Of a stretch of DNA of 15,070 nucleotides, positions 3,706 through 10,067 are shown piece after piece. The first letter of the stretch is position 1; every line of letters begins with the position of its first letter. The stretch comes from a bacterium (GTDB taxonomy: Bacteria; Cyanobacteriota; Vampirovibrionia; Gastranaerophilales; UBA9971): positions 1 through 15,070 of the forward strand of contig JBAWVS010000057.1 in NCBI GenBank assembly GCA_037147175.1, read 5' to 3'. The notes under the pieces are model-generated. The model searched no databases. It worked only from the letters and a program-made list of their open reading frames with translations, and had not been told where the DNA came from. A program made the position numbers and the translations under genes.

Positions 3706-3763
3706 AATGACAAACTACAAATTAACTGACACTTGAGATATTTCTAGTGATTGTTAAGAAAAA

Positions 3764-4708
3764 TTAAGAGTTTAATATATTAAAAACAATCCTAACCAGC
3801 TGCCTTGCAAGGCATTTACGGGCGTGACGTTTTGTTTTTCCCTCAGAGAGTTTTTTTTCAAAATAGGCTTTACCTTTTTCATCATAAATTGATTGAAGAA
3901 TACTTAATCTGTAAAAAATGGAATTTAATTTTCGGTTTCCTGCTTTGTTATTCCTATGTCTAACAGTCTTGCCACTTGATTTATCAACTGGTGCAATCCC
4001 TGCATAACTAGCTAATGCTTCAGGTGAAATAAGCTTCCCTTTTGTCTCTGTATAAATAATTGCTGCCGATAAATCTGCAATACCTGTTAATTGTTTCAAT
4101 TTTTTGACTTTTTCGGGTAAATTCTTTTCAATTTCTTTTTCAAGTTCATTAATTGCTTGAGTAAAATCCCTCAAAGCTTTTCCATAATGCTTAATTATTA
4201 AATCATCGTGTTCTGACAGCCATTTTCCTGCTTTTAATGTCGTTAAATCTTTTAAAGGTAGATTTTCACCTCTTGCTGAAAAAAGCATTTTGACTGCATT
4301 TATGGCTCTTGTTCTGTCTTTTACAAAATGATCTCTCGCTGTAATTTTTTCTTTTAATTGAATAGTCTCAAATGAAATTTTTTGAAGATTGGCCTTGTCA
4401 GCAAATAATGAGATAACCTTAGCATCACCGAAATCGTTTTTAGCATTGCTGATAGCAATTGTCCTACGCCAGCTTGAAGTTAAAAGAGGATTAACTTCAT
4501 AAACTTCGCAACCGTTTCTGATCAAATGTGCGGTAAAAGGTTTACCAAAACAATAAGCCCCTTCAATTGCCCATATAGAGTCATTTCCTGCCCATACCAT
4601 TGCAGCATCGAAGCCTTTTTGATTTGTTTTAAATTCTTTGAACTTGCCGTCTTTGTAACAAGCTAAAGTTTCTTTGTGAGTGTCTACGCCAACCCAATTT
4701 GTGTTCAT
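3764..4708 (-). CDS. IS110-family DEDD recombinase/transposase
   Basis: This 314-residue protein has the two IS110 domains. The N-terminal RuvC-like domain shows WVGVDTHK (Asp9), IWAIEGAY (Glu49) and NDFGDAKV (Asp92 and Asp95), the DEDD set. A helical linker follows at about 110-200. The C-terminal transposase domain shows LTGIADLSAAIIYTE, ASYAGIAPVDKSSGK (candidate nucleophile Ser244 or Ser245) and KAGNRKLNSIFYRL. All key residues are present and the length is normal, so it is probably active. The start is set at 4708, where GAGGA lies about seven bases upstream; the longer frame to 4753 would add 15 residues running into the RNA region. The enzyme would work with the RNA encoded just upstream to choose donor and target DNA. 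Confidence 0.92.
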   Translation of the reverse strand: MNTNWVGVDTHKETLACYKDGKFKEFKTNQKGFDAAMVWAGNDSIWAIEGAYCFGKPFTAHLIRNGCEVYEVNPLLTSSWRRTIAISNAKNDFGDAKVISLFADKANLQKISFETIQLKEKITARDHFVKDRTRAINAVKMLFSARGENLPLKDLTTLKAGKWLSEHDDLIIKHYGKALRDFTQAINELEKEIEKNLPEKVKKLKQLTGIADLSAAIIYTETKGKLISPEALASYAGIAPVDKSSGKTVRHRNNKAGNRKLNSIFYRLSILQSIYDEKGKAYFEKKLSEGKTKRHARKCLARQLVRIVFNILNS

Positions 4709-4734
4709 AACAATATCCTCATACATTAAATAAA

Positions 4735-4862
4735 AAAATGTTTTAACGGACAATCCTGCTTCAAGAAGAATTCGAGTATTTCTTAAGTCTCGTTAAAACG
4801 AGGAAGGGAAGGACAATCTCATGTTAAGTCGTAAAGACTGGAACTAGATGAGTCTCAACCCT
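4735..4862 (-). ncRNA. Candidate IS110 bridge RNA
   Basis: This non-coding end of the element reads, on the minus strand, as two nested stem-loop regions. The first has AGACT/AGTCT closing an 11-base loop CATCTAGTTCC (4840-4850). The second has a perfect nine-base-pair stem GTTTTAACG/CGTTAAAAC (arms 4791-4799 and 4738-4746) enclosing an internal hairpin CTTAAGAA/TTCTTGAAG. Nine bases of the first loop (GGAACTAGA on the plus strand, 4840-4848) recur in the flanking target gene at 4898-4906. The second region carries AAATACT, which also occurs at the element end (4886-4892). Two loops carrying target-like and donor-like sequence are what a bridge RNA should show. The RNA ends are estimated, and the target match starts about five bases beyond the core, which is not the published IS621 geometry. 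Confidence 0.6.
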
Positions 4863-5079
4863 TCTTTTTTATTACATCACAAAAAAAATACTAAGCAGGA
4901 ACTAGAACCTGATTATACCCGTACAGAGGCTGAATTATTAAAACTTGCTTATGACTTATATTGCAACAGTTATAGTGATGAAGAAATGAAAAAAGCCAAA
5001 GAAAAATTTGACAGTGATATTCCAAAAACCATTGCCTACATAGAAAAAGAGTGTGGTTGGAAAGCTGAGGAGATATAAA

Positions 5080-5295
5080 ATGCAAAACTACAAAATGACT
5101 GATACTTGGCAGGAGGAAGATTCCTACACAACAACAGAGCCGGAACTATTTCTTCTGGCATATGAACTTTTTTGCGGCAGACCTGTCGGCGAAGACTTAA
5201 AACAGGCTAAAAAAGAATTTGGCAAAGATATTGAAAATACCATTGGCTACATTGAGCAAGAATGCGGTTGGCACGCAGAAGCCTTAACAGCTTAA
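5080..5295 (+). CDS. Small phage protein, intact paralogue of the IS-split gene
   Basis: This 71-residue acidic protein is of unknown function. It has a short variable N-terminus (MQNYKMTDTW), then TEPELFLLAYELFCG, a charged helix EDLKQAKKEFGKD and NTIGYIEQECGWHAE. The pattern of three helices and conserved Trp/Cys is shared with the interrupted gene just upstream, so the pair arose by tandem duplication. GAGGAGA (5067-5073), inside the end of the upstream remnant, is its ribosome site, and ATG 5080 follows that stop codon by one base. It is the last plus-strand prophage gene before the convergent terminator. Only this copy remains intact in the window. Confidence 0.6.
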   Translation: MQNYKMTDTWQEEDSYTTTEPELFLLAYELFCGRPVGEDLKQAKKEFGKDIENTIGYIEQECGWHAEALTA

Positions 5296-6089: not shown

Positions 6090-7181
6090 TTAATTTTTGA
6101 TAAAATCACCGTACTTGTCCATAGTTGCCTGTAATAAATAATCCCCCAGTTGCTTATGAAGAGAATCTACAGACATTCCGTCTTGAAGAGCACTGTATGC
6201 GTAAGTATGCCTGAGTTCATTAAATGTTATCCTCGGGAATTTAAGCTGTTTTACAAGCATTGCAAATTCAATTCTGATTCGTTTATCCTGAGTAAACCAA
6301 CTTAAACTTGTATCATAAAAAACAAAATCATCTTGCTGTTTATTTTTTATAACTTGATAAAGTTTCAATACTAAGTTTTCAGGAATATTAACCTGCCTGA
6401 TGACTGTTCTGACTTTAGGAAACAGCAGTCCTTTTTCACATAGAGTTTTATTAATATTAATTTTTCTGTTTGTTAAATCTATATCTTCTTTTTTCAGGGC
6501 TAACAGTTCTGCTTTTCTTATACCCGTTGATAATATCATTAAGGCAGGCAAATAAAGATAAGGATAAGAGGTTTTAGCTGTTTTTAAAAAAGTTTGAACT
6601 TCTGATACGTTTAATATTTGAATACTGCATTTTTTTTCAAATTTTACATTAATAATTCCGTTATAAGGACTTTCTGATACGAATCCCCATTCTTTAAATT
6701 TATTAAACATATTTCCGAAGAGGGTTACATGGCTGTTCAATCGTTTATTTGTCATCCCTTGTTTTGATTTAAGCTCGATAAATTCCTTAAGATTATATTG
6801 AGTAATATTTTTAAGTTCCATTTTCCAAAAGAACGGAATCAAATTACTGTTAATCAAGCTTCTGTATGTTTTATAAGTTGACGGAGTAAGATTTTCTTGT
6901 GCATAGTTTGTTAAAAAGTATTCTGCCGCTTGTCTGAAAGTAATATTATTATCTTTAACTAATTGTATTTTTTGTTTTTCAACAAGTCTAAAAGTTAAAC
7001 TTTTTTGAGCCGGTTGATATTTAAATTTGTTTTTATCAATGGGAATAATTTTTTCTTCTTTGATAAATTCTGCGAGTATTTCATCCGCTTCAATTTCATC
7101 AACGTCAGCCATAATGATAATATCATCCTGCGAGAATGTGTTTAATCCCTTCATTATTTTTAAAATTCTGTCTTGAATCAT
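6090..7181 (-). CDS. Tyrosine recombinase with extra N-terminal domain
   Basis: This 363-residue protein has three parts. Residues 1-60 look like a small helical, winged-helix-like domain. Residues ~80-170 are an integrase SAM-like core-binding domain (ITFRQAAEYFLTNYAQENLTP). Residues ~185-363 are the catalytic domain. Arg222 (STGIRKAELLALKKEDIDL), a possible Lys256, Arg324 (NELRHTYA) and Tyr357 (TMDKYGDF) are in place. The two usual catalytic histidines appear replaced: Asn321 stands where HxxR has His, and Asp347 (QLGDYLL) where LGH has His. Its start lies inside the end of the MuB-like gene with a 59-base overlap, so the two are coupled. AAGGAG lies ten bases upstream. It may act as a resolvase or integrase for the phage, or only bind DNA. 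Confidence 0.82.
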   Translation of the reverse strand: MIQDRILKIMKGLNTFSQDDIIIMADVDEIEADEILAEFIKEEKIIPIDKNKFKYQPAQKSLTFRLVEKQKIQLVKDNNITFRQAAEYFLTNYAQENLTPSTYKTYRSLINSNLIPFFWKMELKNITQYNLKEFIELKSKQGMTNKRLNSHVTLFGNMFNKFKEWGFVSESPYNGIINVKFEKKCSIQILNVSEVQTFLKTAKTSYPYLYLPALMILSTGIRKAELLALKKEDIDLTNRKININKTLCEKGLLFPKVRTVIRQVNIPENLVLKLYQVIKNKQQDDFVFYDTSLSWFTQDKRIRIEFAMLVKQLKFPRITFNELRHTYAYSALQDGMSVDSLHKQLGDYLLQATMDKYGDFIKN

Positions 7182-7863
7182 TCTTTAGTATCTCCTTCAT
7201 TATATTTTCATCTATTACTTGAATGTTATTAGTCTTGGCGACTGCTTCTACCTTATTTATTACTCTGACAATTTGTCTGAATCTGTTTGCCTGTGAATGA
7301 ATTGCTGTTGTAGCAGATTCAGTTATCTCGACTTCGGAAAGTTGAGTGACAATATCTTTCACATCACCGGCAGAGAATGATTTGAACTGAATAATTTCTG
7401 ATAACCTGTCATAGAGGTGTCTATACTTCTGAAGTTTTTTCTCCACGAGAGTCATTCCTACAAAAATAATAGGGACATTCGTTTTATCATGAATGTCCCT
7501 TATCGTTTCTATTGTCTTTTGATCCCCTGCTAGATAGTCAATCTCGTCAATTATTATCATCTGCGGTTTTTCAATCAGCTTGTTCACTGCCTGTTTGAAT
7601 AAATCCGAAGTCCAGTATCGAGGAATATCATCAAGCTGCTCGACAAGTTCTTCTAAAAACCATCTGCCTGTCATAAGATTTGTACTTCGTATGTAAATTG
7701 CATCATTTTGAGCTGCAAGCCAAAGTGCTGTGCGTGATTTTCCAAGTCCCGGCTCTCCATAAACCAGAGCCATCTTTGAAACTCCGTCAGGTTTTTCCTT
7801 TAGTGAATTAATCAAAGAGATAAATGCTTTTACATTCTGCGTTTTAACAAAAACTTTTTTCAT
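7123..7863 (-). CDS. MuB-like AAA+ ATPase, transposition target-selection protein
   Basis: This 246-residue protein is a single AAA+ module. Walker A is GEPGLGKS (residues 36-43) and Walker B is MIIIDEID (102-109), followed by a sensor-1-like region (VPIIFVGMTL) and an arginine-rich segment YRHLYDRLSEII. The C-terminal ~60 residues form a helical domain (FRQIVRVINKVEAVAKTNN) as in MuB and related ATPases. In Mu this protein coats target DNA and stimulates the transposase. It lacks an obvious separate N-terminal helix-turn-helix domain like that of Mu B, so it is shorter than Mu B. AAGGA lies seven bases before ATG 7863. It begins 11 bases after the transposase stop codon, which supports a joint operon. 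TnsC/TniB-type ATPases are the main alternative. Confidence 0.85.
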   Translation of the reverse strand: MKKVFVKTQNVKAFISLINSLKEKPDGVSKMALVYGEPGLGKSRTALWLAAQNDAIYIRSTNLMTGRWFLEELVEQLDDIPRYWTSDLFKQAVNKLIEKPQMIIIDEIDYLAGDQKTIETIRDIHDKTNVPIIFVGMTLVEKKLQKYRHLYDRLSEIIQFKSFSAGDVKDIVTQLSEVEITESATTAIHSQANRFRQIVRVINKVEAVAKTNNIQVIDENIMKEILKNDSRQNFKNNEGIKHILAG

Positions 7864-7874
7864 AATTTTTCCTT

Positions 7875-9938
7875 TTACTCTTCATCTGCGTAAATTAATT
7901 TGTACTCGTCACTGTTTTTGTAATTCTGCAACCACTTTCTTTCGTCAACCGAGGTGCATCCGTATTTCATGAGCCATTCGTACTGCTCGTAGTTGTTCAT
8001 GAATACAGGTTTTAATCTGTCCTGCAATATAATCGGCTCTTTTTTAACTTCAATAACCGGAATATTCTGCTGGGAGATATTTTCCTCTGCTATTTGAGTC
8101 TCTAAAAACTTGATATCTTCTTTCGGAAGGTATTTTTTGATTGTTTTTAATGTCCGATTAACAAGTTTTTTCTTTTTTTGTATTTTATGTTTGAAATCTT
8201 GCATGTCTTTAATGTCTCCCATGTGATAAGCCATCGGATGTGTTGCTGTAACTCGTTTTGCTGTGCATAGAAATTCTCCTGCGGTTGTGTAAACTTTGAT
8301 TTTTGTCAGGTCAAATAAGCTGTAGCGAATCATGACCCTGTCTCGTAAACCGTAGAGGACATCTGAATTGTAATCAGTATTTAAGAACCTTATTCCGTTT
8401 CGGTTTATTGTCTTAATTTCATGTGCCATCATAAGTTCATCAAGTTTATTTACATCGATGTTTTGTTTTTCTCTGGATTCAAAAACTTCTTTTATGCTGC
8501 GGGTTCTGTCATTAGGACATGGTTGAGAATGTCTGTACTCCAGCCAAGTATTTATCAGCCTGATTGTTTCTTCTATCGTTGGAGTGTATCCTTGATTAAC
8601 TTTGTCATATAGTTCTTTATGAAACTTTTCGTTGCGTTTCAGGTGAGCAGGTTTATTTTTTATTGATGAGCCGATGTAAGTCGGGAGAAGTTTTTCAAAT
8701 TCTTCTTGGAATTCTTTAAAAAATCTTTCGATAACTTTTGCTTTTGCATTATATGGTTTTGCGTACACAGGTTTGATTCCGAGGCTTGTGTATATCCCGC
8801 TGAACCCTGCTTCACTGAAGTCACTGCATTTAGAAAAGTATTTTGCTTTAAAGGCTTTGCCGTTGTCCTGATAAACTATTTCAGGAATCATATCCAAGTT
8901 TATAATTGACATTCGAAGAGCTGAAGCAATTGCTTGCGTGTTTTCTTCGAGTAAAATTTCATATCCTGTAAAGTAACCGCTTTTCCAATCGAGGAATCCG
9001 ACTATAACTGCCCTGCATGGTTTCCCCGTGAAAGGATTTATCACTAAAAAATTCAGTACATGTCCGTCTGCGACTAAAATTTGACCGGGAGCAATTTTTG
9101 AAATATCTCTTTTAATGTAGGGAATCACTTTGTCCTGAAGCGATTTTTCACCTTCACGCATCAAAATCCATTTATCGTAATTTTTTCTTTTAAACCAATC
9201 TGCGTATCTTCTGAATGTGACATCCTGCGGGAGCAAAATATCTTCACCGTTTTCAATTTTTCTTTTTTCAAGAATATGTTTTGTGAGTTTTATTGCTTTG
9301 CCTATGCAGAACTGATTCGGGTGCAGCAGAAGTTTTAAAAAGATTCCGATTTCTTCTTCAGTCAGGATAGTTCTATATTCATTAAAACTTGAATATTTAT
9401 ACTGCGGGACAAGGACTTCCCAGCTTTCATACTCTGTATAAGTTTTGTACCAGCGTTGCAAGCTGCCTCGTGAAGTTTTTCCTATTATTTGAAAAATATT
9501 TTTTAAATATTCACCGCTGTTATACAGGTCAACAAATAGTTTATCGCCTTTTTGTCTTGGCTTTTGTTTGTTTCTGAACTTTTGCCAATCGCAAACTAAA
9601 TCAACTCGTGCAAGTGCAATTGTTTTTGCTGTCTCAGGAATAAATCCTGATTCAGTTTGCACAGATTTTTCAATCTTAAAGATTGGTTCTTGATTAACAG
9701 TTTCAATAATTTCTTTGTAGTAAGTATTTTTGTAAATGTCCTGTGTTTTTTCATCAAGGGATGACAGTAAAATCTCATAACTTTTACCGCCCTGCCCCAT
9801 AGTCTCTCTGAAAACATATTTCCCTTTCGGAAGTGCGAGTCGGATTCCTCTTGACGTTACGTTTTTAATTTCTGCGAGTGTTTTTATGTCGATCCATATT
9901 TCTGAATTTAAATTTGCTACGACACTTTTTTCGTTCAT
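7875..9938 (-). CDS. MuA-like DDE transposase
   Basis: This 687-residue protein has the Mu A order of domains. The N-terminal winged-helix DNA-binding domain is at about 10-60 (IWIDIKTLAEIKNVTSRGI, then GQGGKSYEILLSSL). A helical site-binding region follows, then the RNase-H-like core with Asp291 (LVADGH), Asp358 (YQDNGKAF) and Glu404 (KVIERFF). A C-terminal beta-barrel and a Lys-rich tail complete it. The Asp-Asp distance of 67 equals that in Mu A. The tail after about residue 580 is where Mu A binds its ATPase and ClpX. ATG 9938 is chosen because AGGAG lies eight bases upstream; earlier starts (ATG 9944, TTG 9977) are too near to or beyond that site. All catalytic residues are present, so it may be active. 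Confidence 0.93.
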   Translation of the reverse strand: MNEKSVVANLNSEIWIDIKTLAEIKNVTSRGIRLALPKGKYVFRETMGQGGKSYEILLSSLDEKTQDIYKNTYYKEIIETVNQEPIFKIEKSVQTESGFIPETAKTIALARVDLVCDWQKFRNKQKPRQKGDKLFVDLYNSGEYLKNIFQIIGKTSRGSLQRWYKTYTEYESWEVLVPQYKYSSFNEYRTILTEEEIGIFLKLLLHPNQFCIGKAIKLTKHILEKRKIENGEDILLPQDVTFRRYADWFKRKNYDKWILMREGEKSLQDKVIPYIKRDISKIAPGQILVADGHVLNFLVINPFTGKPCRAVIVGFLDWKSGYFTGYEILLEENTQAIASALRMSIINLDMIPEIVYQDNGKAFKAKYFSKCSDFSEAGFSGIYTSLGIKPVYAKPYNAKAKVIERFFKEFQEEFEKLLPTYIGSSIKNKPAHLKRNEKFHKELYDKVNQGYTPTIEETIRLINTWLEYRHSQPCPNDRTRSIKEVFESREKQNIDVNKLDELMMAHEIKTINRNGIRFLNTDYNSDVLYGLRDRVMIRYSLFDLTKIKVYTTAGEFLCTAKRVTATHPMAYHMGDIKDMQDFKHKIQKKKKLVNRTLKTIKKYLPKEDIKFLETQIAEENISQQNIPVIEVKKEPIILQDRLKPVFMNNYEQYEWLMKYGCTSVDERKWLQNYKNSDEYKLIYADEE

Positions 9939-10067
9939 ATACATTGCTCCTGATGTTTTTCTACACCGTAGTAGCAATGATAAATCGGAATGCGGAAATT
10001 GGAACTCTTGTTCCGTCAGTTGTGTCGCAATTGCATCAATAAATATTTACTGCGTGTAAAAATTTAT

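What the first reader, a model, noticed from the sequence alone, without database searches (positions are those of the whole stretch)
4735..4906. IS110 bridge RNA candidate whose loop matches the interrupted gene
The 184-base non-coding end before the IS110 recombinase folds, on the minus strand, into two stem-loop regions. The 11-base loop of the first contains nine bases, GGAACTAGA on the plus strand (4840-4848), that recur only 6 to 14 bases outside the element (4898-4906). In the element's own orientation the RNA has the same sequence as the top strand of the left target, the sense a left target guide should have. The second region carries AAATACT, found at the element end. A nine-base match within so small a search space is unlikely by chance, but not excluded. 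The match begins about five bases from the presumed core, so the guide geometry would differ from IS621 or the core is misplaced.
Basis: partly seen in the sequence, partly recalled or inferred. Interest (0 to 1): 0.75.

Follow-up and report, generated by a model that had tools for sequence, protein, structure and literature searches.

The report
IS110 bridge RNA naming its insertion site
A small jumping gene in a gut-type bacterium carries a guide RNA whose loops spell out both the gene it jumped into and its own two ends, so it belongs to the recently discovered RNA-guided "bridge recombinase" elements, with the twist that the two-letter crossover sequence differs between target and donor.

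Summary
The candidate holds up. Window 3736-4897 (minus strand) is a 1,162-bp IS110-group element. Its left non-coding end encodes a two-loop bridge RNA, about 4740-4864. The 9-nt loop match is exact and is the left target guide. A covariance model built from relatives found 32 homologous RNAs in 17 of 383 genomes of the order. Their stems covary (11 of 21 pairs change on both sides; 0 of 500 shuffles match). Across 18 guides, each guide fits its own flank (5.2 of 7 variable bases, against 2.4 after permutation; p ≤ 1e-5; also without the window).

Uninterrupted copies of two relatives' target sites (10 of 10), and restoration of the interrupted reading frame, put the insertion point directly next to the guide match. 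Geometry is therefore IS621-like. The second loop matches the element's own two ends.

The unexpected part: target sites carry CC at the core, while the element's right end carries CT. The RNA's left guides encode their own core and its right guides the partner's, as expected for pairing after strand exchange. IS621 uses CT on both sides. The unequal cores rest on sequence from several genomes. The mechanistic reading is inferred; no RNA or recombination was measured.

The parts
3736..4897 (-). IS110-group insertion element, 1,162 bp; begins TGCTTAG (4897 downwards), ends AGAAATATCT (3736)
   Evidence: Ends conserved in relatives. Ungapped flank joins in relatives. Reading frame of the host gene restored when the flanks are joined.
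3764..4708 (-). IS110 recombinase, 314 aa; DEDD residues D9, E49, D92, D95 and serine S245 align with IS621 D11, E60, D102, D105, S241
   Evidence: Pfam PF01548 and PF02371; IS621 and ISCro4 chains; residues invariant in relatives.
4871..4879 (-). conserved extended -10-like promoter element TGATGTAAT, probable start of bridge RNA transcription
   Evidence: Present in nearly all copies of the main clade, absent from the TTGCTTA subclade. Inferred, not measured.
4740..4864 (-). predicted bridge RNA, about 125 nt: target-binding loop, then donor-binding loop
   Evidence: Covarying structure; model R1 finds 32 homologues.
4803..4864 (-). target-binding stem-loop
   Evidence: Helices 1-3.
4840..4848 (-). 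left target guide TCTAGTTCC (7 variable bases plus CC core)
   Evidence: Identical to 4898-4906; guide/flank permutation.
4816..4824 (-). right target guide ACATG, then AG (core complement) and AT (handshake bases)
   Evidence: 4 of 5 match to the right flank. AG and AT invariant in 27 of 27. Family-wide p = 0.024 over 7 copies.
4740..4799 (-). donor-binding stem-loop
   Evidence: Helix 4, 8 pairs, 3 with change on both sides.
4775..4783 (-). left donor guide AGAAATA, followed by CT
   Evidence: Matches the right end AGAAATATCT.
4755..4761 (-). right donor guide AAGCA followed by GG
   Evidence: Reverse complement of CC-TGCTT at the left junction. In relatives TGCATA ends go with ATGCA guides.
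4898..4906 (-). left target, TCTAGTTCC in element orientation (core CC at 4898-4899)
3736..3745 (-). right end / left donor AGAAATATCT (core CT at 3736-3737)
   Evidence: Conserved in relatives.
3707..3735 (+). first part of the interrupted host gene (MTNYKLTDTW...)
   Evidence: Joined flanks read through in frame. Homologue in G021 (L056) and paralogue at 5080-5295.
4898..5078 (+). second part of the interrupted host gene (...ELEPDYTRTEAELL...)

Best explanation
The left end of this IS110-group element encodes a bridge RNA that binds the element's DEDD recombinase. [quoted passage not shown] Its second loop pairs with the joined ends of the circular element: AGAAATA with the right end, AAGCA with the left end. 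The recombinase cuts after a two-base core and exchanges strands, joining ...TCTAGTTCC to TGCTTAG... and ...AGAAATATCT to CAAGTG.... This placed the element precisely in a small phage-like gene. Shown by sequence: the matches, their covariation in relatives, the boundaries and the conserved fold. Inferred: expression, binding and cleavage.
For: IS110 recombinase with the IS621 catalytic residues. Covarying two-loop RNA: 98.3% of cells paired, 11 of 21 pairs with two-sided change, 0 of 500 shuffles, slid controls collapse. 32 homologous RNAs in 17 of 383 genomes. Guides fit their own flanks: 5.23 of 7 against 2.38, p <= 1e-5, and 0 of 200,000 permutations without the window. In G250 a different guide AACCGTT meets a matching flank AACCGTT. 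Right target guide p = 0.024. Donor guide covaries with the left end, AAGCA/TGCTT and ATGCA/TGCAT. Empty sites fit the join ungapped in 10 of 10. Host reading frame restored.
Against: No RNA or recombination data. Only one copy in this genome, so its guide has no second natural target here. Several relatives show 1-3 mismatches, and elements of G150 lack a right-guide match. No 5' stem-loop like that of IS621 was identified. Rfam has no matching family.
Confidence: 0.95

Rival explanations
1. The 9-base match is chance; the RNA is real but its loop has nothing to do with this insertion site.
Against: Same loop position and same register match flanks across 18 different guides. The window guide matches at most 3 of 7 bases in 25 other flanks.
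Confidence: 0.02
2. The structured leader is mainly a regulator of recombinase translation or a terminator, and the guide matches are by-products.
For: It lies directly upstream of the recombinase start and is stably folded.
Against: Loop bases vary freely between relatives while stems are kept, and loops follow the insertion site and element ends. A regulator would not track flanks.
Confidence: 0.02
3. Core is CT on both sides, with the element starting CTGCTTAG, as a repeat-based boundary call would give; the apparent CC/CT difference is a misreading.
For: CT is present at both ends, and IS621 uses CT in both molecules.
Against: Joining on that assumption leaves one base too many against empty sites, seen as a one-base gap at the junction, and breaks the window gene's frame. 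The CC | join fits 10 of 10 sites and restores the frame.
Confidence: 0.1

Closest known systems
IS621 and its bridge RNA (Durrant 2024, PMC11208160; Hiraizumi 2024, PMC11208158)
   Same: RNA in the long left end; target loop then donor loop; left guide of about 9 nt ending at the core with bottom-strand pairing; shorter right guide with top-strand pairing; handshake bases after the right guide; palindromic target sites in part of the family.
   Different: Target core CC instead of CT while the donor core stays CT; right guides encode the partner's core; probable transcript about 125 nt without an evident 5' stem-loop; recombinase only distantly related in sequence (phmmer E 4.6e-10).
seekRNA of IS110/IS1111 elements (Siddiquee 2024, PMC11187229)
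   Same: Upstream non-coding RNA with short stretches matching both target strands, natural retargeting among relatives, no added bases at insertion.
   Different: Those authors studied other elements (ISEc11, ISEc21); no sequence relation was tested here.
ISCro4 bridge recombinase (PDB 9t56)
   Same: Recombinase aligns over almost its full length, residues 4-314.
   Different: Its RNA was not available for comparison.

Membership tests
IS110 family, IS110 group | DEDD RuvC-type recombinase with C-terminal Transposase_20 domain and catalytic serine | tested here: met
   PF01548 and PF02371 over cut-off; D9/E49/D92/D95/S245 aligned with IS621.
IS110 family, IS110 group | long non-coding end upstream of the recombinase (left), short right end | tested here: met
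   189 nt left (4709-4897) against 28 nt right (3736-3763).
bridge RNA | conserved structure with two internal loops | tested here: met
bridge RNA | first loop covaries with target flanks | tested here: met
   Left guide p <= 1e-5; right guide p = 0.024.
bridge RNA | second loop matches or covaries with the element's own ends | tested here: met
   AAGCA/TGCTT and ATGCA/TGCAT; AGAAATA with the right end.
bridge RNA (IS621 type) | same CT core dinucleotide in target and donor | tested here: not met
   Target CC (27 of 27 left junctions, 9 of 10 empty sites), donor end CT.
bridge RNA (IS621 type) | 5' stem-loop before the target loop | tested here: inconclusive
   None apparent between the presumed promoter and the target loop; transcript start unknown.
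bridge RNA | promoter reconstituted at the circular RE-LE junction | tested here: inconclusive
   Conserved extended -10 inside the left end; no clear -35 was assigned.
bridge RNA | RNA binds recombinase and directs recombination | not testable with these tools
   Needs biochemistry.

The most novel reading that the evidence does not exclude
This lineage recombines molecules with unequal cores (CC in the target, CT in the donor). Its bridge RNA encodes them crosswise: each left guide carries its own molecule's core, each right guide the partner's core, so the right guides are complementary to the product after top-strand exchange. This would extend handshake pairing into the core and allow directional use of two different cores. 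Boundary methods that look for a repeated core would shift such elements by one base.
Probability: 0.5. Interest if true: 0.6.

Novelty: new variant of a known kind. Interest (0 to 1): 0.47.

Why it matters
It adds a natural, reprogrammed set of bridge RNAs from the order of gut-associated Gastranaerophilales-like bacteria; a text search of the main bridge RNA paper found no mention of this group. It also indicates that the two-base core need not be identical in target and donor. If confirmed, that would relax a stated constraint on bridge recombinases and give a direct test of when right-guide pairing acts (before or after strand exchange).

Tried and rejected
My first reading, core CT on both sides with the element at 3736-4898, was rejected. 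It left one extra base against empty sites and a frame-shifted host gene. A boundary drawn from the downstream paralogue (TGGCAGG) was also rejected; the GCAG similarity there is coincidental, because GCA belongs to the element end. Viral contig scans found no relatives. Plasmid records gave only relatives of about 30% identity. Further searches of three genera added no new copies. Rfam has no family for it. No empty site for the window itself was found in its two congeners: no match to the flanking gene there.

Full report
WHAT IS THERE. The window is one whole contig of a 2.66-Mb genome. Its relatives include a Candidatus Gastranaerophilales genome. On the minus strand lies a single-copy IS110-group element. 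The recombinase (3764-4708) matches PF01548 and PF02371 and, by sequence, the solved IS621 and ISCro4 recombinases. The catalytic D9, E49, D92, D95 and S245 align with IS621 D11, E60, D102, D105 and S241 and are invariant in relatives.

THE OBSERVATION. GGAACTAGA is present only at 4840-4848 and 4898-4906. In element orientation both read TCTAGTTCC. One lies in the first loop of the folded left end and the other in the flank. Alone this is a roughly 1% coincidence when the whole flank is searched, so relatives were needed.

RELATIVES AND STRUCTURE. Recombinases of roughly 47-58% identity were found in other genomes of the order, each with a similar left end. On six of these, window included, a structure with target-loop stems, an inner hairpin and a donor-loop stem has 98.3% of cells paired and 11 of 21 pairs changed on both sides. 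No shuffle of 500 reached this, and sliding the partner by one to three bases destroys it. A covariance model from them found 32 RNAs in 17 of 383 genomes, without any use of flanks.

GUIDES FOLLOW TARGETS. For 18 distinct guides the seven variable bases before CC were compared with the seven bases before CC in the flanks. Own flanks match 5.23 of 7, permuted ones 2.38; none of 100,000 permutations reached the observed value, nor of 200,000 when the window was left out. The window and G250 match 7 of 7 with quite different sequences (TCTAGTT, AACCGTT). The register was set by one rule for all (last CC of the guide). The right target guide is weaker: 17 of 28 against 10.7, p = 0.024, seven copies, with none of four bases matching in the two G150 elements. 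The donor loop follows the element ends: TGCTTA ends go with AAGCA guides, TGCATA ends with ATGCA guides. AGAAATA equals the conserved right end.

BOUNDARIES. At first I took CT as a repeated core. Uninterrupted homologous copies of two relatives' target sites were then found. All those aligned showed one base less than that reading predicts. Joining the flanks directly (left flank ending CC, right flank starting after ATATCT) fits 10 of 10 sites without a gap and better than neighbouring alternatives. In the window the same join (...CTAGTTCC | CAAGTG...) restores an open frame, MTNYKLTDTWELEPDYTRTEAELL.... It aligns with a homologue in G021 (MSKYRMFDTWECEEPYTATEKELF) and a paralogue downstream. 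For the window the nucleotide comparison with G021 alone is not discriminating; the frame is. Nothing was duplicated or lost. The left target guide therefore ends exactly at the cut, as positions 1-9 do in IS621 (PMC11208158).

UNEQUAL CORES. In IS621 CT is the core in both molecules, and matching it is strongly preferred (PMC11208160). Here every left junction carries CC (27 of 27; visible without any pattern filter) and nine of ten empty sites carry CC. Right ends end in CT, with one CC exception in a decayed copy, L047. In the RNA the left target guide ends CC, the right target guide is followed by AG in 27 of 27 and then AT in 27 of 27. The right donor guide is followed by GG and the left donor guide mostly by CT. 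AG-AT is the complement of the right end's AT-CT. GG is the complement of the target's CC. So the right guides fit the exchanged product, which agrees with the published statement that the right guides pair with the incoming core after exchange and with the handshake bases. This crossed coding is my inference. It rests mostly on invariant positions, so it is consistent rather than proven by covariation. The published boundary method sought repeated, concordant cores, so elements of this sort could be shifted or dropped there.

EXPRESSION. A conserved TGN-TTTAAT-like extended -10 lies just before the target loop in the main clade. The RNA probably starts near 4864, which leaves no room for an IS621-like 5' stem-loop. 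This is inference only.

VERDICT. A genuine bridge RNA, a member of a known kind by all features tested except the identical CT core, which was tested and not met. It is filed as a variant.

Noticed in passing
L034, L042, L018, L029, L031, L039 (left flanks): Six of 27 insertion sites in this family end a palindrome such as GGTGGGC..GCCCACC or GGCGGGAT..ATCCCGCC (expected 0.16 by shuffling), reminiscent of IS621 targeting REP palindromes.
   Followed up: partly
window 6090-9977 (minus): A Mu/Tni-like transposase (PF09299), a TniB-like AAA ATPase and an overlapping tyrosine recombinase stand together, near amidase and M15 peptidase genes at 1475-2498: a possible transposable phage or Tn7/Tni-like unit with two recombinases.
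   Followed up: no
L003 4001-5098 / L008 / L012: The G236 recombinase is split by a roughly 150-base insert with a long palindrome (CGCACCCATACCAGC..GGTATGGGTGCG), itself perhaps a small mobile repeat.
   Followed up: no
L004 4572 and 5179 (L010 1993 and 2600): Two right ends AGAAATATCT in tandem about 607 bp apart, both followed by CTGCCCT, beside one truncated left end.
   Followed up: no
L023, L037, L029, L031, L039: A subclade with left end CC-TTGCTTA and, where readable, right donor guide AAGCAA-GG or AAACAA-GG, one base longer on both sides: a matching insertion in guide and donor. It lacks the conserved extended -10.
   Followed up: partly
L040, L044, L033, L034, L042, L025, L038, L026, L035, L027, L043, L036: Many copies stop at contig ends inside the RNA, so multi-copy elements break these assemblies and their right flanks are missing.
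   Followed up: partly
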